Assembly: GCA_030527685.1 (NCBI GenBank)
Contig: JAUNAG010000002.1
Span: 1-55,553 of the forward strand
Direction of reading: 5' to 3'
Source: Lachnospiraceae bacterium
GTDB taxonomy: Bacteria; Bacillota; Clostridia; Lachnospirales; Lachnospiraceae
DNA: 55,553 nt
The position numbers were made by a program, and so were the translations under genes. Each line of letters opens with the position of its first letter. Positions within the stretch are counted from its first letter, which is position 1. Positions 33,215 to 45,748 of the stretch are shown piece by piece. The notes under the pieces are model-generated. The model made no database searches. It had not been told where the DNA came from and worked only from the letters and a program-made list of their open reading frames with translations.

Positions 33215-34366
33215 TCACATCTGCCGTATCAGACATGCAAGCTGATACGGCATTTTTTCCATCGGCGTATCGAGCTCACTGTTCAGCAGGCTGCGGATCT
33301 TTGTCATGCGGTAGCTGATTGTATTGCGATGAATGAACAGATCTTCCGATACCGCCTGAATACTCCCGTCATTGCGCAGATAACTGTCCAGCGTCTTTAC
33401 ATAATCCGAATCATGCTTCTGATCGTACTCCAGGAGAGGCGCCAGAAGTTCATCACTCATCTGGGAAAGAAGTGCCCGGTCCTCTACGCTGTAGAGAAGG
33501 CGGAAGATTCCCATCTGATCAAATTCCACCATCCCGCTCTGCTCCGAAACGGCGCGCAGGGCTGCCGCTCTGGCTCGCTTATATGTACTGCGGAGGTGTG
33601 TAATATCCGTCACCTGACTCCCGATACCTATGACAAAACCGGAGCGGGGCATCCTTTTCCGCAGATTTTTCTCAAAGCCCTTTATAATCTTCCGGACCGT
33701 ATCCGTCTCAACTGCATTGATCACGACCACAAACACGGAGTCGTAATAAAAGAAATGCGCGTTATGCGTCAGGTTGGTCATGTTGATCTGCAGACGATAG
33801 GCAATTCGCTTTCGTTCTACCGTGTCCATGCTGTCGAGGCCTTCCTTGTAGAGCACGACAGCCTGAAATGTTCCGTCTACGTCAAAATACGGCAGCAGCA
33901 CCTTCATGTACCGTCCCTGCTCCTCCGGACTGTCAATGGCCTGAATCAGAGCCTTGGAAATCTCCTCGTCCGTTGTACCCTGCAGGAAGACACGAATACT
34001 CAGGTCCTTAATCATATCCGCCAGATAGACATCCCACGGTACCGTCAGAAGCGGGAAATCGTGCTCATCGCAGAACGCAAGCACCTCTTCTGAAAAATCG
34101 TTGATATAGCGGCCCACATTTACAATCAGACCAGCGGCATGAGCAGAGGTCAGCTGCTCCAGAAGCATCATAAAGGCTTCCTCGCTCTGAAATCCCAATC
34201 CTGTCGTCACCGCCAGCTCTTTTCCTCTGAAGTTATGGATAATAGTAAAATCCTCCAGCATCAGCAGCCAGCTGATGGAATTGGACCACCCCTGTCTGCC
34301 TGCAATCAGCTTCATCCGGTAGCGGTTTTCCGAAACCAGCATCATATCTTCCACTGTAAAACCCAT
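33215..34366 (-). CDS. PucR-family transcriptional regulator
   Basis: The product has 383 residues from MGFTVEDMMLV (34366) with GGGAG seven bases upstream. The N-terminal PucR domain occupies about residues 5-125 (LLMLEDFTIIHNFRGKELAVTTG, in part). A degenerate GGDEF-like middle follows. The C-terminal helix-turn-helix is LDSYLRNDGSIQAVSEDLFIHRNTISYRMTKIRSLL (in part). PucR proteins control purine or amino-acid use. It is divergent from a 53-residue gene, and two near-identical palindromes lie between them. Confidence 0.9.
   Translation of the reverse strand: MGFTVEDMMLVSENRYRMKLIAGRQGWSNSISWLLMLEDFTIIHNFRGKELAVTTGLGFQSEEAFMMLLEQLTSAHAAGLIVNVGRYINDFSEEVLAFCDEHDFPLLTVPWDVYLADMIKDLSIRVFLQGTTDEEISKALIQAIDSPEEQGRYMKVLLPYFDVDGTFQAVVLYKEGLDSMDTVERKRIAYRLQINMTNLTHNAHFFYYDSVFVVVINAVETDTVRKIIKGFEKNLRKRMPRSGFVIGIGSQVTDITHLRSTYKRARAAALRAVSEQSGMVEFDQMGIFRLLYSVEDRALLSQMSDELLAPLLEYDQKHDSDYVKTLDSYLRNDGSIQAVSEDLFIHRNTISYRMTKIRSLLNSELDTPMEKMPYQLACLIRQM
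33222..33258 (+). terminator. Terminator of the DUF554 gene inside pucR coding sequence
   Basis: TGCCGTATCAG and CTGATACGGCA pair perfectly, followed by TTTTTT, all within the last 15 codons of the oppositely transcribed regulator. Confidence 0.9.
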
Positions 34367-34400
34367 CGCAGTTCTCCCTTTTTGAAATACTGCATACAAT

Positions 34401-34415
34401 TGTGCTCTCAGCACA
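34401..34415. promoter_or_regulatory. Candidate operator 1 (TGTGCT-N3-AGCACA)
   Basis: Perfect 15-bp palindrome 35 bases upstream of the pucR-type start. A second copy at 34475-34489 differs in one arm base. Confidence 0.6.
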
Positions 34416-34447
34416 TATTTTACCACATACTTTGAGGTTGCGGCATA

Positions 34448-34874: not shown

Positions 34875-34908
34875 AAAAAGATGGGGCTGCCGGATCGGCA
34901 GCCCCATC
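34875..34908 (-). terminator. Terminator after frdA
   Basis: GATGGGGCTGCC and GGCAGCCCCATC form a 12-pair stem. On the minus strand a T run follows. It is 40 bp past the frdA stop and ends the hdr-flx-frd transcript. Confidence 0.9.
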
Positions 34909-34947
34909 TTTTATGTTGTTCTTTTTAATTATCCGCGGCCAGCAGAA

Positions 34948-36570
34948 TTACTGGATGATGCCTACGCCTTCCAGTGTTGTGCGCTCACGAACGTACTTCG
35001 GAAGAAGCTTCGGAGATACAAGCTCTGTCTCGATGCCTGCATCAGCGATTTCCTTCTCGTAAGCTGCAACATGGTCGATGTTCAGCTTGCCGACTGTAAC
35101 GTCCTTGAATCTTGCACCTGCAGCCTTACCTGCGTCACGGCCGAAGACGATGACGTCAAGCAGAGAGTTGCCCATCAGACGGTTTGTTCCGTGAACACCA
35201 CCTGTTACCTCGCCTGCTGCGAACAGGTTCGGAACTGCTGTCTCGCAGTTTGTGTCGATGTCCAGACCGCCGTTCTGGTAATGCAGTGTCGGGTAAACCA
35301 GCATCGGCTCCTTTGTGATATCGATGCCGCGCTTCTCGAACATACGGTACATAGCCGGGATACGCTTCTGGATTGTGCCCTCACCGTTCTTCATATCGAT
35401 GATCGGGGAGTCAAGCCATACACCGTAGCCGTGCTCTGTCTCTACGCCGTTGCCTCTCTTGCACTCGCGGATGATGGCAGCTGCCTCAACGTCACGGGTC
35501 TCAAGCGGATGTACGAAGATCTCGCCGTTCTTGTTGACAACCTTTGCACCAAGGGAACGAACCTTCTCTGTTACCAGTGCGCCGTAGATCTGATCCGGAT
35601 AAGCAACGCCTGTCGGATGATACTGCAGTGTGTACTGATACAGAAGCTTAGCGCCTGCTCTGTAACCAAGAACAAGGCCGTCAGCTGTTGCACCGTAGTG
35701 GTTGGATGTCGGGAAGCCCTGGTAATGCATACGGCCTGCACCGCCTGTTGCCAGAACGACGCACTTAGCCTTTACAACGAAGAGTTCAAGAGTCTCCATG
35801 TTGATGAGGATAGCGCCTGCTGCATTGCCCTTCTCGTCCTTGATGATTTCGACTGCTGAAGTGAACTCCAGAATCGGGATCTGACGATTCAGAACTTCGT
35901 CACGAAGAGTACGCATGATTTCTGCACCGGAGTAGTCCTTGCATGCATGCATTCTCTTTCTGGATGTTCCGCCGCCGTGTGTAGTAACCATACGGCCTGT
36001 CTCATCCTTATCGAACTCGCAGCCGAGCTTGTTCAGCCACAGAATGTCTTCCGGAGCTTCTGTAACAAGCTTTGCTACCAGTTCCTTCTTAGCCATGAAG
36101 TGGCCGCCGCCGTAAGCATCAAGGAAGTGCTGCTGCGGAGAGTCATTCTCCTTGTCAGCTGCCTGGATGCCGCCTTCTGCCATCATGGTGTTAGCGTCAC
36201 CTGTGCGGAGCTTTGTTGCGATCATAACCTTAGCGCCTGCATCGTCAGCTTCGATTGCTGCAGAGCAGCCAGCGCCGCCGCCGCCGATGATCAGGACATC
36301 GACGTCATATGCCGGATTCTCAAGGTCGACATCGCCGTCATGAATTCTCGCATGAGCCTGCAGCATATCTGCCAGCTCGTGAGGTGCCTTCTCACCCTTG
36401 TTCGGGCCGATTTTCAGTTCCTCAAAAGCATCCTCGTTGTAATCCGGATGGAATTCTGCAAGAAGAGCGTCCTTCTCTTCTGCAGTCATACGTCTCGGTT
36501 CTGCTGCCGCATTGGCTGCACGATTCTCCGCGACCTTCTCGAGCGATTCCTTATAACTTTCTGGATACAT
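34948..36570 (-). CDS. frdA: Soluble fumarate reductase flavoprotein subunit
   Basis: The product has 540 residues. The family FAD fold starts late, with GGGGAG at residues 96-101, after a roughly 88-residue N-terminal extension. All fumarate-site residues known from the family are visible: His318 (QYHPTG), Arg359 (ETRDV), His430 (LHYQNGG) and Arg464 (GTNRLMGNSL). The position of the covalent-FAD histidine of membrane enzymes is Asn127 (GDANTMMAEGG), so FAD should be non-covalent. The usual C-terminal helical domain is mostly missing. No membrane anchor gene is present. It lies 111 bp after frdB. Direction (fumarate reduction) is inferred from context. Confidence 0.88.
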   Translation of the reverse strand: MYPESYKESLEKVAENRAANAAAEPRRMTAEEKDALLAEFHPDYNEDAFEELKIGPNKGEKAPHELADMLQAHARIHDGDVDLENPAYDVDVLIIGGGGAGCSAAIEADDAGAKVMIATKLRTGDANTMMAEGGIQAADKENDSPQQHFLDAYGGGHFMAKKELVAKLVTEAPEDILWLNKLGCEFDKDETGRMVTTHGGGTSRKRMHACKDYSGAEIMRTLRDEVLNRQIPILEFTSAVEIIKDEKGNAAGAILINMETLELFVVKAKCVVLATGGAGRMHYQGFPTSNHYGATADGLVLGYRAGAKLLYQYTLQYHPTGVAYPDQIYGALVTEKVRSLGAKVVNKNGEIFVHPLETRDVEAAAIIRECKRGNGVETEHGYGVWLDSPIIDMKNGEGTIQKRIPAMYRMFEKRGIDITKEPMLVYPTLHYQNGGLDIDTNCETAVPNLFAAGEVTGGVHGTNRLMGNSLLDVIVFGRDAGKAAGARFKDVTVGKLNIDHVAAYEKEIADAGIETELVSPKLLPKYVRERTTLEGVGIIQ

Positions 36571-36681
36571 AGATCTGTGATCCTCCTGTTTTGTTCTCTC
36601 TTGCTAATCATACGTGACTGCTGTACGGAGGCTCCGGTGCTTCCGGGCCTGCCGTTTTATTCTTATGTCGCGTCTGACCAG

Positions 36682-37353
36682 TTATGCCTCAATGTCGCGG
36701 GTGTTGTACATCTCGCGGATTTCTGCGTCGGACTTGTTCATGTAGTCTTCCATTGCAGACTTGAAGTTGCCGTCGTAGATTTCCTTCACGCGGTTGATCA
36801 GATGCTCTGCATCCGGTGTGAGATACTTTCCGTTCAGTCTTCTTGCAAGCTCAGCAACCTGCGGATGAGAGATGCCTGCCGGGCATCTTGAGGAGCAGAC
36901 ACCGCACATGACGCAGTCGAAGGACTCATCAGCGCAAGCCTTGAAGTCGCCTCTCTGTGCGTAAGCGATATACTGCATGGTGTTCAGACCCTGTGTGCAG
37001 GCCTTTGTGCAGGCGTTGCAGCCGATGCAGGAATAGATTTCCGGATAGAGCTGCATCATCAGCATCTGTGTCGGCTCAACCTTGTTGATATCGTAGATCT
37101 GCTTAACAAGCGGGAAGAACGGAAGTGTAGCAACGTACATCTCGTCCTCAACCTTTGTCTGGCATGCAAGAGCCATCTGAAGCTCCTGCTTTCCCTTAAT
37201 TCTGTAGATTGTTGCGCATGCGCCGCAGAAACCGTTGCGGCAGCCGCATCCGCGGACAAGCTGATAGCCGGCATACTCCAGAGCCGTCATAATCGTCAGA
37301 TTATCCGGTACCTCGTACTTCTTACCGAAGAAGTATACATTTACATTTGCCAT
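36682..37353 (-). CDS. frdB: Fumarate reductase iron-sulfur subunit
   Basis: The product has 223 residues from MANVNVYFFGKKYEV (37353) with GGAGG 11 bases upstream. The longer open frame from 37515 runs through a repeat and is rejected. Residues 1-70 form a [2Fe-2S] ferredoxin domain with Cys36, 38, 43, 46 and 64. Then come two cubane motifs, Cys109/112/115/119 and Cys147/150/153/157. This differs from the classical FrdB, which binds one [3Fe-4S] cluster, and recalls the N-terminal half of methanogen thiol:fumarate reductase TfrB. The HdrB-like half of TfrB is absent here but hdrB is encoded in the same gene cluster. Confidence 0.85.
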   Translation of the reverse strand: MANVNVYFFGKKYEVPDNLTIMTALEYAGYQLVRGCGCRNGFCGACATIYRIKGKQELQMALACQTKVEDEMYVATLPFFPLVKQIYDINKVEPTQMLMMQLYPEIYSCIGCNACTKACTQGLNTMQYIAYAQRGDFKACADESFDCVMCGVCSSRCPAGISHPQVAELARRLNGKYLTPDAEHLINRVKEIYDGNFKSAMEDYMNKSDAEIREMYNTRDIEA

Positions 37354-37409
37354 AAGAGTGAAATCCTCCTGATTCCTTGGTTTTACAATACTTCGAAGTG
37401 GCAATTTCG

Positions 37410-37660
37410 GCTCCTTCTCATGCGGCATCTTCTTGCCCTCCGGGCAAGAAGCCCACGGCTGGCGCCGTATGACCGTCTGCTCCGCCCTTCGCGTTCGGAT
37501 GCAAACGTGTCGCATGTAAGAATAATTAGCTCCTTCTCATGCGGCATCTTCTTGCCCTCCGGGCAAGAAGCCCACGGCTGGCGCCGTATGGCCGTCTGCT
37601 CCGCCCTTCGCGTTCGGATGCGAGCATCCGACGCTTGTGCGTCGCAGACATGCCGCATGG
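37410..37660. repeat. Two 93-bp direct repeats with internal hairpins between flxA and frdB
   Basis: 37410-37502 and 37529-37621 are identical except one base (A at 37472, G at 37591), offset 119 bp. Each holds the perfect hairpin CTTCTTGCCC-TCC-GGGCAAGAAG. The 3' end adds CGGATGC-GA-GCATCCG and GACGC-TTGT-GCGTC. The outer ends CATGCGGCAT (37419) and ATGCCGCATG (37650) are inverted copies. It interrupts an otherwise tight operon and looks like a REP or small non-autonomous mobile element that duplicated internally. Confidence 0.85.
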
Positions 37661-37674
37661 CTTGTAGCCTATGA

Positions 37675-38502
37675 TTAGTACTCCGGCGGAAGTTTGTTCA
37701 GCTGATCGAAGCTGAAGACCGGGCCGTCTTTGCATACGTACTGGTTACCGATGTTGCAGCGTCCGCATTTGCCGATACCGCACTTCATTCTCATCTCCAT
37801 CGTTGTCCAGACCTGCTCTTCCTTGAAGCCAAGCTTCTTTAATCCCTCCAGTGTGAAGTGGATCATGATCGGCGGTCCGCAGATGATCGGAACAAGGGTT
37901 GTCGGGAAGTTCAGCTCTGTTACGTAGTTCGGTACGAAGCCTACGTGGCCGTCCCAGCCTTCCTGCTCACGGTCAATCGTCAGGTAGATATTGGTGTTCG
38001 GGCAGTCCATCCACTCATTCAGGATTTCCTGGTAATCTACCAGATCATCCTTGGAACGGGAGCCGTAAAGTACGTTGATCTGTCCGTAGTTCTCACGATT
38101 GTCACGGCAGTAGTTGATGACAGAACGGAGCGGTGCAAGACCGATACCGCCTGCGATGAACAGCAGATCCTTGCCCTTGAAGAAGCCTTCTACCGGGAAG
38201 CCGTTGCCGTACGGTCCGCGTACGCAGATCTCCTGTCCTACATCCATTGCATGCAGCCAGCTTGTCAGGCAGCCGCACTTCTTAATTGAAAACTCCATGT
38301 ACTCTGTGTTGGTCGGTGAGGATGTAATAGAGAACATACCTTCACCGATTCCCGGGATTGAGAGCATGGCGCACTGTCCGGGGATGTGCTCGAACAGCTT
38401 CTTTCCGTCAAGTCCTACAACACGGAAGGTCTTGACATCCGGCGTATCCTGTCGGATATCAATGACGACACCGAGCTGCGGAATCAGTTCTTCTCTGACC
38501 AT
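37675..38502 (-). CDS. flxA: NADH/FAD/[2Fe-2S] oxidoreductase subunit (FlxA-like)
   Basis: The product has 275 residues. Its ATG (38502) overlaps the upstream stop by one base, with GGAGG seven bases before. The ferredoxin-reductase fold binds FAD (MFSITSSP, residues 56-63) and NAD (AGGIGLAPLRS, 117-127). The C-terminus carries a [2Fe-2S] site of the PyrK type: Cys241, 246, 249 and 257. It would take hydride from NADH and pass electrons to the iron-sulfur subunits encoded upstream. Hydrogenase and PyrK gamma subunits look alike. The linkage to hdr genes points to FlxA of the Flx-Hdr complex. Confidence 0.85.
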   Translation of the reverse strand: MVREELIPQLGVVIDIRQDTPDVKTFRVVGLDGKKLFEHIPGQCAMLSIPGIGEGMFSITSSPTNTEYMEFSIKKCGCLTSWLHAMDVGQEICVRGPYGNGFPVEGFFKGKDLLFIAGGIGLAPLRSVINYCRDNRENYGQINVLYGSRSKDDLVDYQEILNEWMDCPNTNIYLTIDREQEGWDGHVGFVPNYVTELNFPTTLVPIICGPPIMIHFTLEGLKKLGFKEEQVWTTMEMRMKCGIGKCGRCNIGNQYVCKDGPVFSFDQLNKLPPEY

Positions 38503-39527
38503 TATGCGTCCTCCTCGAGTGTCTTCATGACTTTGACAATGTTCATCTGAATCGGGCACTTCTTGAGGCATCTGCCGCAGCCCACGCAGCTGTACATACC
38601 GTCATTCTTGATCGGGTAGTATACAAGCTTGTGCATGAATCTCTGGCGGAAGCGCTCCTTCTGTGTCAGTCGCGGTGTACCTGCTGCCATCAGAGTGAAG
38701 TCATTGTACATGCAGCTGTCCCAGCAGCGATAACGCTCGATGCCGTGGCCGGAGTCGAAGTCGTTGATGTCGAAGCACTGGCAGGTCGGGCATACGAAGG
38801 TGCATGCGCCGCAGCCGAGGCAGTGGCTGGAAAGCTCTGCCCACTTCGGAGAATTGAAGAGCTCAAGCTCCTTTTCTCTGTTGTCGACCGGCTTCAGCTC
38901 TGCAAGCGGAAGCTTTGCAAGGATCGTGCGGGTCTTCTCAACCTGCTCTTCAACCTTGTCTTCGCCGCCTTCCTTCAGTACATCCTTTGCATAACCGACG
39001 AGCTTTTCGCCCTTCTCGGTCAGCGGCTCAATGTAGAAGGAATCGCCTGTAATCCATGCTCTTGCATCGCCGTCTGCCGGCTTTGCAGCATCAATATCGA
39101 AGGAGCCGCAGAAGCAGGTTTCAGCCGGTCTTGTGCAGGCCAGTGTCACTACTGTCGCATGCTCTCTTCTTGTCTGGTAGTTTGTGTCTACCGGATCAGC
39201 AAGGAAGACGTTGTCCAGAACCTTGAAGGATCTGACGTCACATGCTCTTGCACCGAAGATAACGAAGTCTTCGGATTCTTTTCTGTGATCGATGATCTCG
39301 ATCTTCTTTCCTTCACGGCGGAACTTAGCCAGCGGCTGAATCTGCGGGAAGAAGAAGTCCTTTGCAGAACGCAGTGTGTTGAGCTTTGTGCTGAGCTTCA
39401 GGCCCGGCTTGTACTCGGTAAAGTTAGCTTCACCCTGTGCTGTTTCGGCGGGAATGTAAACCTTCTCTGCTCCGTTGATGAGAGAAAGGATCTGATCAAG
39501 ATCCGCAAGTGCTGCCTGATAGATCAT
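38502..39527 (-). CDS. flxB: Dicluster iron-sulfur subunit (FlxB-like)
   Basis: The product has 341 residues, start overlapping the previous stop by four bases. The N-terminal 200 residues are the domain shared with anaerobic sulfite reductase A and hydrogenase beta subunits (FGARACDVRS near 91-100, CFCGSFD near 138). Two ferredoxin motifs follow: Cys236/239/242/246 and Cys314/317/320/324. Extra cysteines (CQC at 249-251, CWDSC at 268-272) lie between. It is expected to relay electrons between the NADH site and the MvhD/HdrA part. Confidence 0.82.
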   Translation of the reverse strand: MIYQAALADLDQILSLINGAEKVYIPAETAQGEANFTEYKPGLKLSTKLNTLRSAKDFFFPQIQPLAKFRREGKKIEIIDHRKESEDFVIFGARACDVRSFKVLDNVFLADPVDTNYQTRREHATVVTLACTRPAETCFCGSFDIDAAKPADGDARAWITGDSFYIEPLTEKGEKLVGYAKDVLKEGGEDKVEEQVEKTRTILAKLPLAELKPVDNREKELELFNSPKWAELSSHCLGCGACTFVCPTCQCFDINDFDSGHGIERYRCWDSCMYNDFTLMAAGTPRLTQKERFRQRFMHKLVYYPIKNDGMYSCVGCGRCLKKCPIQMNIVKVMKTLEEDA

Positions 39528-40501
39528 TCTGCGCCTCCCTTCTGTACGATTGACGGTTCCACATCATTGTGCTCAGTGTAAGCAGCGACCGGGCTCATCT
39601 GTCCGACCTCTTCACCGGCCTGGAACTCACCGTAGAACTCATTGATATCACGGATGAACTTACGGTTCAGGAGATGCAGCGGAATGTTCTCCGGGCATAC
39701 TCTTGAGCACTCGCCGCAGTCTGTGCAGCGTCCGGCAACGTGATAAGCGCGGATAATATGGAACATATTCTCCTCGAAGGAATCACGCGCACCTCTGTTC
39801 TGTGTGCCGGAGTTCGGGTTGTCGAATACGCACTTCTCGCAGGTACATGCCGGGCAGACATTTCTGCAGGCATTGCAGCGGATGCAGCGTGAGAGCTCGC
39901 CTCTCCAGAAGTTGAAGCGCTCTTCTGCTGTCATCTTCTCCAGCTTCTCGACCATATCGAAACGGCCGCTGTCTGCTACTACTTCACCGTCCTCACCGAC
40001 CAGCTCGTCGTAAACAACGTGCTTCTTGGACTTGCAGGTGAGGCAGCGGTTCAGCATGACTTCGTAAGCCGGAACCTGCTCTTCGCCGTAAATTGTGCTG
40101 ACCTTCAGCGTGCCGTTGACATTTTCAATATCTGTAATGCCTTCGATGCCGCGCTGGCGGAGCTTTTCCACGTCAACCTTGCCGTAGCTCTCGATACCGA
40201 TGATATAAACGTTCTCTCGCTTAATCTTGTACTCAGTCTGCAGCTGGTTGAAGCTGTAGGTATCGCAGGGCTTTAAGAATACCAGCACCTTGCCTTCCTT
40301 CTCGGATTCCTTGATCAGATACTTGGAGAGGTTGTCGGCGCAGAAATCATTATATACAAAATGCTCTTTCACATCTTCAACGCTTGTGAAGACTGCCGGA
40401 GTGATGTCGTAGACGAACTGGCCTTTCTGCCAGCCGAGAACGCGATTCACGGTGCCGTCTTCAAGAAGCTCGCAGGCGCGTTTAATCAGTTCTCCTTGCA
40501 T
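39524..40501 (-). CDS. flxC: Dicluster iron-sulfur subunit (FlxC-like)
   Basis: The product has 325 residues. It overlaps mvhD/flxD by 16 bases and has its own GGAGG. The middle (FLKPCDTYSF, VYIIGIESYG, CLTCKSK) resembles the F420-hydrogenase/formate-dehydrogenase beta domain, though nothing suggests F420 use. The ferredoxin motifs are Cys206/209/212/216 followed by CTCEKC, and Cys259/262/265/269. It is a sister of the FlxB-like subunit and would add further electron-relay clusters or a flavin site. Confidence 0.8.
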   Translation of the reverse strand: MQGELIKRACELLEDGTVNRVLGWQKGQFVYDITPAVFTSVEDVKEHFVYNDFCADNLSKYLIKESEKEGKVLVFLKPCDTYSFNQLQTEYKIKRENVYIIGIESYGKVDVEKLRQRGIEGITDIENVNGTLKVSTIYGEEQVPAYEVMLNRCLTCKSKKHVVYDELVGEDGEVVADSGRFDMVEKLEKMTAEERFNFWRGELSRCIRCNACRNVCPACTCEKCVFDNPNSGTQNRGARDSFEENMFHIIRAYHVAGRCTDCGECSRVCPENIPLHLLNRKFIRDINEFYGEFQAGEEVGQMSPVAAYTEHNDVEPSIVQKGGAE

Positions 40502-40932
40502 CTTATATCCTCCAGTCTTCTGTTCGGTCCAAGCTTTGTGATATCAGCCACAAAGCTGTCCATAACACTCTTGAATCTTGCACCCTCTGCTGCAGATACC
40601 CATTCAACGCGGGTTCTTGCGCTCTCTACGCCAAGGAAGTTCAGCATGGAGAAAAGCAGTGCCATACGGCGTCTGGTGTGGAAGTTTCCGGTGCTGTAGT
40701 GGCAGTCACCCGGGTGGCAGCCGCAGACGATGACGCCGTCGGCGCCGCGCTGGAATGCACGAAGGATGAACTGCGGGTTAACACGGCAGGAGCACGGTAC
40801 GCGGACAATCTTGACATTGGCCGGGTAGCTCAGTCGGTTTGTACCTGCAAGATCCGCACCGCCGTAGGAACACCAGTTGCAGCAGAATGCGATGATCTTC
40901 GGTTCATAGGGCTTGTTTTCATTTACTGACAT
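40486..40932 (-). CDS. flxD: MvhD-type iron-sulfur adaptor (FlxD)
   Basis: The product has 148 residues, the length of MvhD. Cysteines sit in the family pattern: FCCNWCSYGGADLAG (17, 18, 21), RVPCSCRV (47, 49) and CGCHPGDCHY (70, 72, 77). MvhD binds a [2Fe-2S] cluster and docks an electron-donating enzyme onto HdrA. It overlaps the end of hdrA by ten bases, consistent with a stoichiometric complex. With no hydrogenase in the window, the donor is most likely the NADH-oxidising Flx part. Confidence 0.92.
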   Translation of the reverse strand: MSVNENKPYEPKIIAFCCNWCSYGGADLAGTNRLSYPANVKIVRVPCSCRVNPQFILRAFQRGADGVIVCGCHPGDCHYSTGNFHTRRRMALLFSMLNFLGVESARTRVEWVSAAEGARFKSVMDSFVADITKLGPNRRLEDIRCKEN

Positions 40933-42926
40933 AATGCATCAACCTCCGCCATGATTTCTGTGTTGGAGAAGCCCTGCAGATCCATTGCGCCGGACGGGCA
41001 GGTAACGGTGCAGGCACCACAGCCCTGGCAGACAGCCGGGTTAACGGATGCGACACGACGTACCTTTGTTGTACGGTCAGGCATTCTGAATTCCTTCTCG
41101 ACATAGGTGATAGCGCCGTACGGGCAGACAGTTGCGCACTGTGAGCAGCCGTTGCACATCAGTTCGTTCGGTTTGGAAACGCACGGATTGCCTACAAGGT
41201 GATCCTTGGCAAGAAGGCCGATAACCTTAGCTGCAGCAGCGCCGGCCTGGCCGACAGTTTCCGGAATATCCTTCGGTCCCTGGCAGAAACCGCTGAGGAA
41301 GATACCTGCTGTAGCGGACTCAACCGGACGAAGCTTTGCATGAGCTTCTGTGAAGAAGTCATTTGTATCCATCGGAGCAGTCAGCATGGTTGCAAGCGGT
41401 CTTGCTGTCTCGGATGCCTGAAGAGCACCTGCAAGGACGACCATGTCTGCATCGATGTGAAGCTGCTCGTTGAGGATCAGGTCTGAACCCTGGACCTCGA
41501 GCTTTCCTGTTTCCTTGTTCGGAGTAACCTTGCCGACAGCGCCCTTGATGTAATGGACGTTGTACTGCTCAACTGCTCTTCTGTAGAACTCATCGAACAG
41601 CTTGCCCGGTGTACGGACATCGATGTAGAAGACATAGATGTCTGTGTCCGGATAATGATCCTTTGTCAGGATGGCATGCTTAGCTGTGTACATACAGCAG
41701 ACCTTGGAGCAGTACTCCTTGCCGCCGCGGCAGCTGTCCGCAGATTCACGGGAGCCTACGCACTGAACGAAGACGATGGTCTTCGGCTGCTTGCCGTCGG
41801 ACGGGCGAACAAGGTGGCCGCCTGTCGGGCCGGCTGCGGACATCAGACGCTCATACTCAAGAGAGGTGACGACATCCGGGCTCTGTGCATATGCATACTC
41901 ATCATATTTCTCAAGGTTGATCATCTCATAGCCTGTAGCAGCGACAATTGCGCCGTACTCGACATCGATGTACTCATCCTTTGCGTCATAGTTGATCGCA
42001 CCTACGCCACAGACCTTGGAGCAGATACCGCACTTGCCTGTGTTCAGCTTCATGCAGTAGTTCGGATCGATTGTAGCGATCTTCGGAATAGCCTGTGCGA
42101 ACGGAATGTAGACAGCAGAACGGGTTCCAAGACCCATGTTCCACTCATCCGGAACCTTCTTCATCGGGCACTTTTCAGTACACAGACCGCAGCCTGTACA
42201 CTTGTCTTCATCGACATAACGTGCCTTTCTCTTGATGGTTGCGGTGAACTGACCGACGAAGCCCTTGACTGCAGTGACTTCTGAATAAGAGTAAATATGA
42301 ATTCTCTCATTCTGTCCGACATCTACCATCTTCGGTGTAACGATACAGGAAGAGCAGTCCAGAGTCGGGAATGTTTTGTCGAGCTGAGCCATCTTACCGC
42401 CGATGGTCGGCTTCTTCTCGACGATGTCGACTTCGTAGCCTGCCTCTGCGATATCCAGAGCTGTCTGCATACCTGCAATACCGCCGCCGATGACAAGTGC
42501 ACGCTTGGTTACCGGTGTGTTGCCGGCTGTCAGCGGAGTATTCAGAGTAGCCTTGGCAACAGCTGCCTTCATCAGGGCGATTGCCTTCGGTGTACCGATT
42601 TCCTTATCCTTATGTACCCAGGAGCACTGCTCGCGGATATTGGCAACCTCGAGCATGTACGGGTTCATGCCGACAGATGCAACTGCCTTGCGGAAGGTCG
42701 CCTCGTGCATACGCGGCGAGCAGGAGCAGACAACAACATTTGTCAGGTTATACTCTTTAATAGAATCCTTGATCAGTGTCTGACCGGCCTCGGAGCACAT
42801 GTACTGATAGTCCGCGGAGAAAACCACGCCCGGCACTGATTTCGCTGCTTCGGCAACCGCTTTGACATCAACTGTCGCTGCGATATTGGTGCCGCACCAG
42901 CATACAAATACGCCAATTCTCTGCAT
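40923..42926 (-). CDS. hdrA: Heterodisulfide reductase subunit A homologue (bifurcating flavoprotein)
   Basis: The product has 667 residues, typical of the standard HdrA. Domains: an N-terminal cluster domain (Cys9, Cys11; CSCSPRMHE at 67-75), the thioredoxin-reductase-like FAD fold (GGGIAG 147-152, GGKMAQLDKTFPTLDCSSC at 177-194), an inserted ferredoxin (Cys243-253), CGICSKVC near 299, and a C-terminal pair of cubane motifs (from Cys591 and Cys633). HdrA carries the flavin that splits electron pairs between a high- and a low-potential acceptor in methanogens and in HdrA-linked bacterial complexes. Confidence 0.95.
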   Translation of the reverse strand: MQRIGVFVCWCGTNIAATVDVKAVAEAAKSVPGVVFSADYQYMCSEAGQTLIKDSIKEYNLTNVVVCSCSPRMHEATFRKAVASVGMNPYMLEVANIREQCSWVHKDKEIGTPKAIALMKAAVAKATLNTPLTAGNTPVTKRALVIGGGIAGMQTALDIAEAGYEVDIVEKKPTIGGKMAQLDKTFPTLDCSSCIVTPKMVDVGQNERIHIYSYSEVTAVKGFVGQFTATIKRKARYVDEDKCTGCGLCTEKCPMKKVPDEWNMGLGTRSAVYIPFAQAIPKIATIDPNYCMKLNTGKCGICSKVCGVGAINYDAKDEYIDVEYGAIVAATGYEMINLEKYDEYAYAQSPDVVTSLEYERLMSAAGPTGGHLVRPSDGKQPKTIVFVQCVGSRESADSCRGGKEYCSKVCCMYTAKHAILTKDHYPDTDIYVFYIDVRTPGKLFDEFYRRAVEQYNVHYIKGAVGKVTPNKETGKLEVQGSDLILNEQLHIDADMVVLAGALQASETARPLATMLTAPMDTNDFFTEAHAKLRPVESATAGIFLSGFCQGPKDIPETVGQAGAAAAKVIGLLAKDHLVGNPCVSKPNELMCNGCSQCATVCPYGAITYVEKEFRMPDRTTKVRRVASVNPAVCQGCGACTVTCPSGAMDLQGFSNTEIMAEVDALCQ

Positions 42927-42938
42927 TTGATTTCTCCT

Positions 42939-43331
42939 TTACTTCGTGAACTTTCTGTAAGCGCTGACAAGAGCCTGCTGCGGAAGATCCGGATCGAGAA
43001 GTGCCGGAACATTGTCCGGGATCAGGTGATTGCCGCCCTGCTTGCGAACAACGGCAAGACGAATTGCCTCAACAAGCTTAGCCGGCTGTACCTGACGCGG
43101 GCATCTCTCGATGCAGGCCATGCAGGACATGCACTTGTAGATACTGCCGCTCTCCATCAGCTTCTCAATTTCGCCGCGCTCTACCATTGCAACGAACTGA
43201 TGCGGATGATATTCCATGTTATCGAAGGACGGGCAGGTTGCGGTACAACGGCCGCAGCGCATGCACTTTAACGGATTAACGCCGCTGATTGCTTCGATTT
43301 CTGCTTTTGTAACATCGTAGTTAGAGGCCAT
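42939..43331 (-). CDS. hdrC: Heterodisulfide reductase subunit C homologue
   Basis: The product has 130 residues with two cubane motifs: Cys23/26/29/33 (CMRCGRCTATCP) and Cys67/70/73/77 (CMSCMACIERCP). It connects HdrA to HdrB. It starts one base after the hdrB stop and ends 12 bases before hdrA, an arrangement that suggests tightly coupled translation. Confidence 0.93.
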   Translation of the reverse strand: MASNYDVTKAEIEAISGVNPLKCMRCGRCTATCPSFDNMEYHPHQFVAMVERGEIEKLMESGSIYKCMSCMACIERCPRQVQPAKLVEAIRLAVVRKQGGNHLIPDNVPALLDPDLPQQALVSAYRKFTK

Positions 43332-43332
43332 C

Positions 43333-44139
43333 TTATGCGTCCTCCTTTCCTGCTTCCTTCACGCCGAGAGCTTCTGCAAGAACCTCTGTGAAGTATACAA
43401 TCTCGATTCCGGTGCCTTCGGCATGCTTCTTCAGATTGTAATAGCAGAGCGGGCATGCTGTAACCAGCATCTCTGCGCCTGCGTGCTTTGCATCAGCAAG
43501 AATAGCTGCTACTCTCTTCTCCGGAATGCTCTTGTCTTCCAGGGTCAGATAGCCGCCGCAGCACTCATTGCGCTGTGCATAGCTGACTGCATCAGCACCG
43601 AGAGCGCTGATCAGATCCTCGATGATAGTCGGGTTCTCAGCATTGTCCATAGCCATGACATTGCTCGGACGAAGCAGGAGGCAGCCGTAGTACGCGCCGA
43701 TCTTCTTGCCCTTCAGCGGATTCTTCACAGCAGCCTTGACCTGATCAAAACCGATTTCATCGCGAAGAAGCTCAAGGTAATGGATAACCTTTGTTTCGCC
43801 GTGATACTCGATTCCGTCTGCCTTCAGGTAGTTGTTTGCACGAGTTGCGATGTACTCATCTGTTGCCATGTCATTGTTGACCTGCTTGATCACGTTATGA
43901 CATGCAGAGCAGACAGTAACCAGTGCCTGGTCCTTTTTCTGGGCATCGGCAAGTGCTCGGACAGAGCTCAGCTTAATGGCAATTTCATCGTGTGACAGCG
44001 GGTAAACGCCGCCGCAGCACTGCCATTCCGGGATCTCCTCAAGTGTGGCACCGAGAGCTTCGGCAGATCTTCGACCGTATTCGTCGAGGTCACGTGCCTT
44101 GTTCTTCAGTGTACAGCCCGGAAAATAACTGTAAACCAT
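43333..44139 (-). CDS. hdrB: Heterodisulfide reductase subunit B homologue with two CCG domains
   Basis: The product has 268 residues. Both CCG motifs are intact: Cys9, Cys41-Cys42, Cys77, Cys80, then Cys153, Cys193-Cys194, Cys229, Cys232. In methanogens each set holds a non-cubane [4Fe-4S] cluster that splits a disulfide. Intact sets imply a real redox role, not a remnant. The organism shows no sign of CoM/CoB, so the acceptor must be something else: a protein disulfide, a low-molecular thiol, or onward transfer to FrdB. A GAGGAC site precedes the ATG. Confidence 0.93.
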   Translation of the reverse strand: MVYSYFPGCTLKNKARDLDEYGRRSAEALGATLEEIPEWQCCGGVYPLSHDEIAIKLSSVRALADAQKKDQALVTVCSACHNVIKQVNNDMATDEYIATRANNYLKADGIEYHGETKVIHYLELLRDEIGFDQVKAAVKNPLKGKKIGAYYGCLLLRPSNVMAMDNAENPTIIEDLISALGADAVSYAQRNECCGGYLTLEDKSIPEKRVAAILADAKHAGAEMLVTACPLCYYNLKKHAEGTGIEIVYFTEVLAEALGVKEAGKEDA

Positions 44140-44202
44140 ATAGGGTGTCCTCTTCCTTTCGTAAAGGGATGTTTATATAACTGTAAAAGCCCTGCGGTAC
44201 GG

Positions 44203-44290
44203 CCATGACGGAGTCATGCGTGCATGAACATCTGTCATGGACATCCCGCTGACTTTTAGTTCTTTGTAAGTCCGCTCAGCGGACATGACA
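44203..44290. repeat. Cluster of palindromes between fumC and hdrB
   Basis: Outer CCATGAC (44203)/GTCATGG (44234) enclose the perfect TCATGC-GT-GCATGA (44214-44227). Then GTCCGCT-C-AGCGGAC (44270-44284), flanked by TTTGT/ACAAA. No T run follows on the fumC (minus) strand, so it is not a standard terminator. It may stabilise or process a fumC-hdr transcript, or be a REP-type element. Confidence 0.6.
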
Positions 44291-44305
44291 AACCTTTTTT
44301 ATCAA

Positions 44306-45685
44306 TCAGTTTGCCATTTCTTCCGGATGGAAGACTTCATCGAAGCGCTCTTCTGTCAGGAAGCCGAGCTTCACGCATGCTTCCTTCAGAGAGATATTCT
44401 CTTCAAATGCAAGGTGAGCGGTCTTGGCAGCCTTCTCATATCCGATGTACGGATTGAGTGCTGTAACCAGCATCAGAGAGTTGTGCAGGTTGTAATGCAT
44501 CTTCTCTTCGTTTGCCTTGATGCCGACAGCGCAGTTGACGCGGAAGGACTCCATGGACTCTGCAAGAAGTCTTGCAGACTGCAGGAAGTTGTAAGCGATA
44601 ACCGGCATGAAGACGTTCAGCTCGAAGTTACCCTGAGAAGCAGCCATGCCGATTGCTGTGTCGTTACCGATAACCTGAACAGCAACCATGGTAACCTGCT
44701 CGCACTGAGTCGGGTTTACCTTGCCCGGCATGATGGAGCTGCCCGGCTCATTTGCCGGAATTGTGATCTCGCCGAGACCGTCACGCGGGCCGGATGCCAG
44801 CCAGCGAACGTCGTTGGCAATCTTCATCATGTCTGCAGCCATAGCCTTGATAGCGCCGTGTGCAAATACCATCTCATCCTTGGATGTCAGAGCATGATAC
44901 TTGTTCTCTGCAGTACGGAATTCCTTGCCTGTCAGAGCGGAAACCTTCTCAGCAACCTTAACATCGAAGCCTGCCGGTGCATTCAGACCGGTTCCGACAG
45001 CTGTGCCGCCGAGAGCCAGTGTGCGAAGCGGATCCAGGGAAAGCTTCAGCAGCTCGACATCGCGCTCCAGAGAGCTTCTCCAGCCGGAGATCTCCTGGCA
45101 GAACTTGATCGGAACAGCATCCTGCAGATGTGTACGGCCGGACTTAACAATAGACGGATTAGCGGCCTCAAGTTCCTTGAAAGTTTCAATCAGTCTCTCA
45201 GCTGACGGGATCAGCTTGTCCTCGATTGCAATTGCAGCAGAGATGTGCATTGCTGTCGGGAATGTATCGTTGGAGGACTGGCTCATATTGATGTCATCGT
45301 TCGGATGGCAGATCTTCTTGCCTGCGATCTCGTTTGCACGATTGGCGATGACTTCGTTTGTATTCATATTGGACTGTGTGCCTGAACCTGTCTGCCAGAC
45401 AACCAGCGGGAAGTTTTCGTTCAGCTCACCGGAAATAACCTCATCGCAGGCCTTTTCGATTGCTTCAACCTTCTCATCTGTCATCTTTTCCGGCTTCAGG
45501 TCATGGTTAGCCTGTGCAGCTGCCTTCTTCAGAATTCCGAACGCATGAGTAATCTCTCTCGGCATGGTTTCGATACCGACACCGATCAGGAAATTCTCAT
45601 GGCTGCGCTCAGTCTGTGCACCCCAGAGCTTGTCTGCGGGAACCTTGACTTCACCCATTGAATCATGCTCAATACGATATTCCAT
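44306..45685 (-). CDS. fumC: Class II fumarate hydratase
   Basis: The product has 459 residues from MEYRIEHDSMGEVKVPADKLWGAQTERS (in part), ATG at 45685 with GGAG upstream. The signature GSSIMPGKVNPTQCE, the catalytic His in SGRTHLQDAVP, and NDTFPTAMHI are all present. It is an oxygen-stable, iron-free enzyme interconverting malate and fumarate, here supplying fumarate to the reductase. It precedes hdrB by 166 bp in the same direction, making the full block a malate-to-succinate module. Confidence 0.96.
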   Translation of the reverse strand: MEYRIEHDSMGEVKVPADKLWGAQTERSHENFLIGVGIETMPREITHAFGILKKAAAQANHDLKPEKMTDEKVEAIEKACDEVISGELNENFPLVVWQTGSGTQSNMNTNEVIANRANEIAGKKICHPNDDINMSQSSNDTFPTAMHISAAIAIEDKLIPSAERLIETFKELEAANPSIVKSGRTHLQDAVPIKFCQEISGWRSSLERDVELLKLSLDPLRTLALGGTAVGTGLNAPAGFDVKVAEKVSALTGKEFRTAENKYHALTSKDEMVFAHGAIKAMAADMMKIANDVRWLASGPRDGLGEITIPANEPGSSIMPGKVNPTQCEQVTMVAVQVIGNDTAIGMAASQGNFELNVFMPVIAYNFLQSARLLAESMESFRVNCAVGIKANEEKMHYNLHNSLMLVTALNPYIGYEKAAKTAHLAFEENISLKEACVKLGFLTEERFDEVFHPEEMAN

Positions 45686-45748
45686 CTTCGTTTCTCCTGT
45701 TTTCAAACAAATATTTTGTGTTGAACGGGAAGGGCAAAACGCCGCCTC

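What the first reader, a model, noticed from the sequence alone, without database searches (positions are those of the whole stretch)
34948..45685. A soluble NADH-Flx-Hdr-fumarate reductase module, possibly an electron-bifurcating fumarate reductase
Seen: fumC, hdrB-hdrC-hdrA-flxD-flxC-flxB-flxA (gaps of 1 and 12 bases, then overlaps of 10, 16, 4 and 1 base), then frdB-frdA, all in one direction, closed by one terminator. All cluster-binding cysteines are intact. No membrane anchor, hydrogenase or CoM/CoB gene is present. Known: FlxABCD-HdrABC in sulfate reducers oxidises NADH and bifurcates to ferredoxin and a disulfide (DsrC); TfrAB in methanogens joins an FrdB half to an HdrB half. Inference: electrons from NADH split between ferredoxin and fumarate through HdrBC to FrdB-FrdA, giving energy from succinate formation without a quinone. 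An alternative is that Hdr serves a thiol/disulfide pair and Frd is merely a neighbour.
Basis: partly seen in the sequence, partly recalled or inferred. Interest (0 to 1): 0.92.

Follow-up and report, generated by a model that had tools for sequence, protein, structure and literature searches.

The report
Likely electron-splitting fumarate reductase operon
A gut bacterium carries ten neighbouring genes that probably let it reduce fumarate to succinate with NADH in the cell interior while saving part of the energy as reduced ferredoxin, an idea already in print for a relative but, as far as I found, not yet proven in a test tube.

Summary
The operon is real and as described: fumC-hdrB-hdrC-hdrA-flxD-flxC-flxB-flxA-frdB-frdA (45685-34948, minus strand). 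It is not a new kind. A fumarase / Flx-Hdr / fumarate reductase operon in the same block order, with the same idea, is in print for Pseudoclostridium thermosuccinogenes (PMC7282089, citing a 2019 preprint); direct Hdr-Flx-to-TfrAB transfer is proposed for tubeworm symbionts (PMC6315080, PMC11636981). No passage I read reports a purified complex. What I add: (1) Of 80 near relatives, all 64 not cut by a contig end keep the nine hdr/flx/frd genes in order. (2) In the wider FrdA family 21 of 41 loci lie beside hdr-type genes, in several architectures; 20 do not. (3) FrdAB has E-type (SdhABE/Mfr) features: no covalent-FAD histidine, a second [4Fe-4S] motif in FrdB; E-type anchors are HdrB-like. 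(4) In nine operon genomes searches found no UbiA, no DsrC and no CCG protein except this HdrB. Best reading: NADH -> Flx -> HdrA bifurcates to ferredoxin and, through HdrC-HdrB, to FrdB-FrdA. A shared pathway is likely (about 0.85); direct HdrB-FrdB transfer without a thiol is favoured, not shown (about 0.6).

The parts
44306..45685 (-). fumC, class II fumarase, 459 aa
   Evidence: TIGR00979 699.9 bits, over its cut-off 664.75; a TTG start at 45706 is also open
43333..44139 (-). hdrB, 268 aa, two CCG domains, 10-Cys motif
   Evidence: PF02754; nearest solved kin are CoB-CoM heterodisulfide reductase B chains; best NCBIfam hit MFR_anch_SdhE 143.2 bits, below its cut-off 500
42939..43331 (-). 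hdrC, 130 aa, two 4Fe-4S motifs
   Evidence: TIGR03290 58.7 bits, below its cut-off 160
40923..42926 (-). hdrA, 667 aa, flavin and ferredoxin domains; presumed bifurcating subunit
   Evidence: NF040770 771.5 bits, below its cut-off 1100; aligns end to end with solved HdrA 5odc_A
40486..40932 (-). flxD (MvhD/FlpD-like), 148 aa
   Evidence: PF02662 182.2 bits
39524..40501 (-). flxC, Fe-S protein, 325 aa
   Evidence: Fer4 families; position and identity to relatives
38502..39527 (-). flxB, Fe-S protein, 341 aa (sulfhydrogenase beta-like)
   Evidence: NF040829 159.2 bits, below cut-off; solved kin 9nez_B
37675..38502 (-). flxA, FAD/NAD(H) oxidoreductase with a DHODB-type Fe-S domain, 275 aa
   Evidence: PF00175, PF10418; NF006220 222.5 bits, below cut-off
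37410..37621 (.). two 93-nt direct repeats (99%, 119 apart) with a 23-nt palindrome in the flxA-frdB gap
   Evidence: RNA fold of one unit z -5.1; gap median 18 in 79 relatives
36682..37353 (-). frdB, 223 aa, 2Fe-2S plus two CxxCxxCxxxC (4Fe-4S) motifs, no HdrB-like half
34948..36570 (-). frdA, 540 aa, N127 at the covalent-FAD histidine position, catalytic residues kept, no C-terminal flavoprotein domain hit
34876..34912 (.). intrinsic terminator-like hairpin after frdA

Best explanation
The operon encodes a soluble NADH:ferredoxin:fumarate oxidoreductase. FlxABCD takes electrons from NADH and passes them to the HdrA flavin. HdrA bifurcates: one electron goes to ferredoxin, the other through HdrC to the two CCG clusters of HdrB. 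HdrB then serves FrdB, as the HdrB-like SdhE subunit presumably serves SdhB in E-type fumarate reductases, and FrdB feeds the non-covalently bound FAD of FrdA, where fumarate from the co-encoded fumarase becomes succinate. Sum: 2 NADH + fumarate + oxidised ferredoxin -> 2 NAD+ + succinate + reduced (two-electron) ferredoxin. Ferredoxin would be reoxidised by hydrogenase, or by Rnf in those kin that have it. Shown here: genes, motifs, linkage, co-occurrence, absences in searches. Inferred: complex formation, bifurcation, direct HdrB-FrdB transfer.
For: Nine-gene order kept in 64 of 64 loci not cut by a contig end, among the 80 best named contigs. fumC upstream in 57 of the 64. Of 60 of those 80 loci with over 1.5 kb beyond frdA, 47 match an AspT/YidE-type permease, 4 an MDH/LDH and 3 a GTP-PEPCK within 2.5 kb, 6 none of these, which fits a PEP-to-succinate route. 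In 398 genomes of the phylum 41 have this FrdA (E 1e-90) and 37 of these have HdrA (E 1e-150), against 92 of 357 without it (Fisher 4.6e-16; relatedness not corrected, three candidates scored per genome). Flx-Hdr linkage needs 3 changes on the FrdA tree and 3 on the HdrA tree, with differing gene orders. UbiA 0 of 9 operon genomes, control 14 of 14. DsrC 0 of 9 (control rang in 1 of 14, E. coli). CCG domains only in the operon's HdrB, 9 of 9. FrdA catalytic residues H318, R359, H430 in 116 of 116 and R464 in 115 of 116 (one gap); N127 in 115 of 116, one R. E-type traits match the Wolinella SdhABE description (PMC2680327 passages). Energetics (my arithmetic; E0' fumarate +33 mV and NAD -320 mV, ferredoxin -420 to -500 mV recalled): about -49 to -33 kJ/mol. 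In P. thermosuccinogenes the corresponding operon rises about 4-fold at low CO2, though not significantly for all subunits (PMC7282089 passages).
Against: 20 of 41 family loci have no hdr genes in the stretch fetched, and 4 of 18 such genomes searched show no HdrA at E 1e-80, so FrdAB can evidently work without Hdr. HdrB keeps both CCG sites, so disulfide reduction stays possible. The mutual-information test had no power. The FrdB model was unusable (pLDDT 47.8). RnfC stayed under its cut-off in the window's genome and two others of nine, and 1 of 9 showed no [FeFe] hydrogenase, so the ferredoxin sink varies. The 321-base repeat-bearing gap before frdB could weaken co-transcription. In the tubeworm symbiont tfrAB were the exception to the shared expression pattern of the cluster (PMC11636981 passages). 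One of the three linked groups on the trees rests on a single long row, L147.
Confidence: 0.6

Rival explanations
1. Thiol relay: Flx-Hdr reduces a small or protein disulfide, and the resulting thiol is used by FrdAB or elsewhere, as in thiol:fumarate reductase.
For: HdrB keeps all ten CCG cysteines (87 of 87 tallied) and its solved kin are heterodisulfide reductase B chains.
Against: DsrC 0 of 9. FrdB has no thiol-oxidising CCG half, and no other CCG protein was found in 9 of 9 genomes, so a thiol would have no known way into FrdB.
Confidence: 0.2
2. Flx-Hdr-Frd works without bifurcation: NADH electrons go to fumarate only, or the module runs in another direction.
For: Fumarate is positive enough that no coupling is needed; nothing here measures coupling.
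Against: HdrA aligns end to end with methanogen HdrA 5odc_A, whose complex bifurcates (recalled). A plain NADH:fumarate reductase would not seem to need HdrA or nine genes.
Confidence: 0.12
3. FrdAB is only a metabolic neighbour of Flx-Hdr; its donor is another low-potential carrier such as ferredoxin or flavodoxin.
For: 20 of 41 wider-family loci stand apart from hdr genes; 3 of these, in one genus (g102), lie beside a 1,144-aa ORF that I read as pyruvate carboxylase from its first residues (no search), with no HdrA found in the genome.
Against: Unbroken order in the near clade and linkage in separate places on two trees; four loci hold hdrBC, without hdrA nearby, beside frdBA.
Confidence: 0.08

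Closest known systems
'Succinate operon' of Pseudoclostridium thermosuccinogenes (CDQ83_RS03365-RS03315; PMC7282089)
   Same: Fumarate hydratase, then the Flx-Hdr genes (RS03360-30), then fumarate reductase (RS03325-20), then a possible transporter; the same bifurcation hypothesis, credited to a 2019 preprint
   Different: Thermophile; its sequence and the order inside the Flx-Hdr block were not seen here. The window has a terminator and a PucR-type regulator gene after frdA instead of a transporter
rTCA cluster of tubeworm symbionts and Thioflavicoccus mobilis (PMC6315080, PMC11636981)
   Same: flxABCD-hdrABC interspersed with fumarate reductase genes; direct electron delivery proposed
   Different: Autotrophic rTCA setting with korABCD; tfrAB named as putative thiol:fumarate reductase; sequences not compared here
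E-type (SdhABE / 8-methylmenaquinol) fumarate reductase of Wolinella succinogenes (PMC2680327)
   Same: No covalent-FAD histidine, second [4Fe-4S] in the B subunit, partner subunit with a ten-cysteine motif related to heterodisulfide reductase
   Different: Wolinella's enzyme is quinol-linked and exported; here no UbiA gene was found in 9 of 9 operon genomes and HdrB is encoded within an Hdr set
FlxABCD-HdrABC of sulfate reducers (Ramos et al. 2015, seen only as a reference entry)
   Same: Same seven subunits
   Different: No frdAB, disulfide/DsrC acceptor (both recalled)

Membership tests
FlxABCD-HdrABC complex | All seven subunits encoded together | tested here: met
   64 of 64 uncut relatives
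FlxABCD-HdrABC complex | DsrC available as the disulfide acceptor | tested here: not met
   DsrC 0 of 9 genomes, (control: 1 of 14, E. coli); other disulfides not testable; so filed as Flx-Hdr by gene content only
FlxABCD-HdrABC complex | Electron bifurcation to ferredoxin | not testable with these tools
   needs enzymology
P. thermosuccinogenes-type succinate operon | fumarase, Flx-Hdr and frd blocks in one operon, in that order | tested here: met
   against the gene list in PMC7282089; protein sequences of that species not compared
E-type (SdhABE/Mfr) fumarate reductase | No covalent-FAD histidine in the flavoprotein | tested here: met
   N127; 115 of 116 tallied N, one R
E-type (SdhABE/Mfr) fumarate reductase | Second [4Fe-4S] motif in place of [3Fe-4S] in the B subunit | tested here: met
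   C147/150/153/157 in all 123 tallied FrdB rows
E-type (SdhABE/Mfr) fumarate reductase | Curated Mfr family score | tested here: not met
   HdrB 143.2 bits against MFR_anch_SdhE cut-off 500; FrdA 212.8 against 1100
E-type (SdhABE/Mfr) fumarate reductase | Quinol as donor | tested here: not met
   no UbiA prenyltransferase in 9 of 9, control 14 of 14; an indirect test
Thiol:fumarate reductase TfrAB | B subunit with FrdB half fused to an HdrB-like half | tested here: not met
   FrdB is 223 aa without CCG; TfrB model 39.4 bits against 385
Thiol:fumarate reductase TfrAB | TfrA equivalog score | tested here: not met
   362 bits against 718, though TfrA is the best hit
Quinol:fumarate reductase (FrdABCD) | Membrane anchor genes and quinone | tested here: not met
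   no anchor-family hit among the operon's ORFs; UbiA not found

The most novel reading that the evidence does not exclude
HdrBC is a general outlet of HdrA-type bifurcation that can be docked straight onto a soluble E-type fumarate reductase without any thiol. Evolution has made this joint several times with different donors: Flx (NADH) in the window's clade and two other places, a second HdrA-like 1,092-aa flavoprotein with FlxD in family f80, and HdrBC alone in a few lineages. It would be a quinone-free way to conserve energy from fumarate reduction, common in gut Clostridia.
Probability: 0.4. Interest if true: 0.8.

Novelty: new member of a known kind. Interest (0 to 1): 0.55.

Why it matters
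If the mechanism holds, fumarate reduction, usually taken as quinone-linked or wasteful, conserves energy in the cytoplasm of gut and rumen bacteria that seem to lack quinones. That would change energy budgets of succinate formation, a precursor of propionate and a hydrogen sink that competes with methane (recalled).

Tried and rejected
Co-evolution between subunits: 54 sequences, effective number 32; the positive control FrdA-FrdB (4.68) scored below HdrA-FumC (5.27), so no conclusion was drawn; FrdB-HdrB was 4.40. AlphaFold of FrdB: mean pLDDT 47.8, not used, and no fold search was run. The FrdA job was never accepted, so its roughly 85-residue N-terminal extension remains unexplained; family matches begin at model positions 1-5, so it is not limited to Hdr-linked members. 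Gene fusions linking frd to hdr or flx: none found in the loci scanned; only L064 has flxB and flxA in one frame. Urocanate reductase, L-aspartate oxidase and flavocytochrome c were considered for FrdA and set aside because of the FrdB partner, the fumarase neighbour and the conserved dicarboxylate-site residues. Organism: near kin are labelled uncultured Lachnospiraceae/Clostridiales, but I did not establish the taxon of the window.

In one search the tallies cover 71 FrdA, 80 FrdB, 64 HdrB and 65 HdrC rows of the 80, plus 45, 43, 23 and 22 of 45 other loci; short rows were dropped, and the aligned L004-L008 and the window were not tallied. Of the 41 non-own family loci, 5 are Flx-Hdr linked, 11 of the second type (L178 and L183 are cut by contig ends before hdrB and are placed by their FlxD and HdrA-like genes), 4 hdrBC only, 1 other, and 20 unlinked (L174 on an 8.8-kb contig). 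'Unlinked' means within the stretch fetched, 8.8 to 19.5 kb. The phylum searches scored three candidates per genome. The trees are quick trees on part of the rows (58 FrdA, with every sixth of the 80; 52 HdrA, with every eighth). Labels sucC, sucD, aconitase, icd and pyc are my reading of the sequences, not search results.
Full report
What is there. Ten genes lie on the minus strand from 45685 to 34948: fumC, hdrB, hdrC, hdrA, flxD, flxC, flxB, flxA, frdB, frdA, followed by a strong hairpin at 34876-34912. One thing was not mentioned: the flxA-frdB gap is 321 bases and holds two 93-nt repeats with a 23-nt palindrome. In 79 relatives the median gap is 18 bases; the two best-matching named loci, L062 and L063, also have long gaps, 306 and 352.

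How conserved it is. Most are labelled gut or rumen Clostridia and relatives, with single labels of Spirochaetaceae, Treponema and Pyramidobacter. In all 64 that are not cut by a contig end, hdrB-hdrC-hdrA-flxD-flxC-flxB-flxA-frdB-frdA stand in this order on one strand; the other 16 are cut. fumC precedes in 57 of the 64. Of 60 of the 80 loci with over 1.5 kb beyond frdA, 47 match an AspT/YidE-type permease there, 4 an MDH/LDH, 3 a GTP-PEPCK and 6 none of these (family scans of examples; matches). This neighbourhood describes PEP to succinate and, with the conserved active site, makes fumarate the likely substrate. In the window's own genus the operon is an accessory trait: 5 of 36 other genus members have a close FrdA.

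The wider family. In 398 genomes of the phylum, 41 have this FrdA. Besides the window's, 41 loci in 40 genomes were read: 5 beside a full flx-hdr set, 11 beside hdr genes with a second HdrA-like protein and FlxD (two of them cut by contig ends before hdrB), 4 beside hdrBC without hdrA, 1 beside another hdr set, and 20 with no hdr gene in the stretch fetched. Of 18 unlinked genomes searched, 14 have an hdrA-flxD cluster elsewhere and 4 show no HdrA at E 1e-80. Over the whole sample, 37 of 41 FrdA genomes have HdrA against 92 of 357 others (Fisher p 4.6e-16; not corrected for relatedness, three candidates scored per genome). On the FrdA tree the Flx-Hdr linkage needs three changes, and so it does on the HdrA tree. 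The three linked groups differ in gene order, which suggests repeated assembly; but one gain with losses is not excluded, one group is the single long row L147, and these are quick trees.

What kind of fumarate reductase. Aligned with E. coli FrdA, the position of the covalent-FAD histidine holds N127, while H318, R359, H430 and R464 match the catalytic residues (alignment; the roles of the E. coli residues are recalled). N127 is kept in 115 of 116 tallied rows. No C-terminal flavoprotein domain is found. FrdB binds, by motif, a 2Fe-2S and two 4Fe-4S clusters, and has no HdrB half. The passages I read of the Wolinella SdhABE paper (PMC2680327) describe the same traits for that enzyme: histidine not conserved, a second [4Fe-4S] pattern, and a third subunit SdhE with a ten-cysteine motif related to heterodisulfide reductases and no predicted transmembrane domain. 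They also cite yeast mutants showing that covalent FAD is needed for succinate oxidation. The window's HdrB scores best with the SdhE model, only just ahead of HdrB (143.2 and 139.2 bits, both under their cut-offs). So the likely joint is HdrB to FrdB. By curated scores it is neither a TfrAB nor an Mfr enzyme.

What else could HdrB serve? In nine operon genomes no CCG domain was found outside this HdrB, no DsrC was found (control 1 of 14), and no UbiA prenyltransferase was found although the control rang in 14 of 14 genomes. [FeFe] hydrogenase was found in 8 of 9, including the window's genome; RnfC exceeds its cut-off in 6 of 9, not in the window's genome. The window's genome is 91% complete, so its own absences are weaker than the pattern over nine.

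What is in print. PMC7282089 (passages read) describes the 'succinate operon' of P. thermosuccinogenes: fumarate hydratase, Flx-Hdr, fumarate reductase and a hypothetical protein that may be a transporter, about 4-fold up at low CO2, though not significantly for all subunits. [quoted passage not shown] PMC6315080 and PMC11636981 (passages) propose direct delivery from Hdr-Flx to TfrAB in tubeworm symbionts; the latter names tfrAB as the exception to the shared expression pattern of the cluster. Ten searches of the library listed no paper on a purified bifurcating fumarate reductase by title or by the start of the abstract; most papers of subscription journals, and preprints, are not held.

Verdict. 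The central idea is plausible and already published as a hypothesis, and the window is a further member with strong comparative support. The open questions are whether HdrB hands electrons straight to FrdB and whether ferredoxin reduction is obligatory.

Noticed in passing
window 37410-37621; L186 10529-11279: Repeats with a 23-nt palindrome lie in the flxA-frdB gap of the window (2 copies, 119 apart) and of genus relative G027 (126-nt spacing, different sequence). They look like a mobile or structural repeat, perhaps affecting frdBA expression.
   Followed up: partly
L156, L165, L169, L173, L175, L176, L178, L180, L182, L183, L184: In family f80 the FrdAB cluster has hdr genes, a 1,092-aa HdrA-like flavoprotein, flxD and a weakly FlxC-like protein, without FlxA or FlxB; genes that I read as sucC and sucD (no family search) lie nearby in all 11.
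   Followed up: partly
L151, L159, L172, L177: Only hdrB and hdrC stand beside frdBA (three of the four with class I fumarase genes), while the genome's HdrA lies elsewhere.
   Followed up: partly
HdrA hits listed: Many HdrA hits outside this operon type carry one in-frame TGA, perhaps selenocysteine; none of the listed Frd-linked HdrA hits do (the list was cut).
   Followed up: no
L066, L083, L132: The operon also occurs on contigs labelled Pyramidobacter, Spirochaetaceae and Treponema, suggesting gene transfer or mis-binning.
   Followed up: no
window 33215-34426: A PucR-type regulator gene lies just beyond the terminator, on the same strand as the operon.
   Followed up: no
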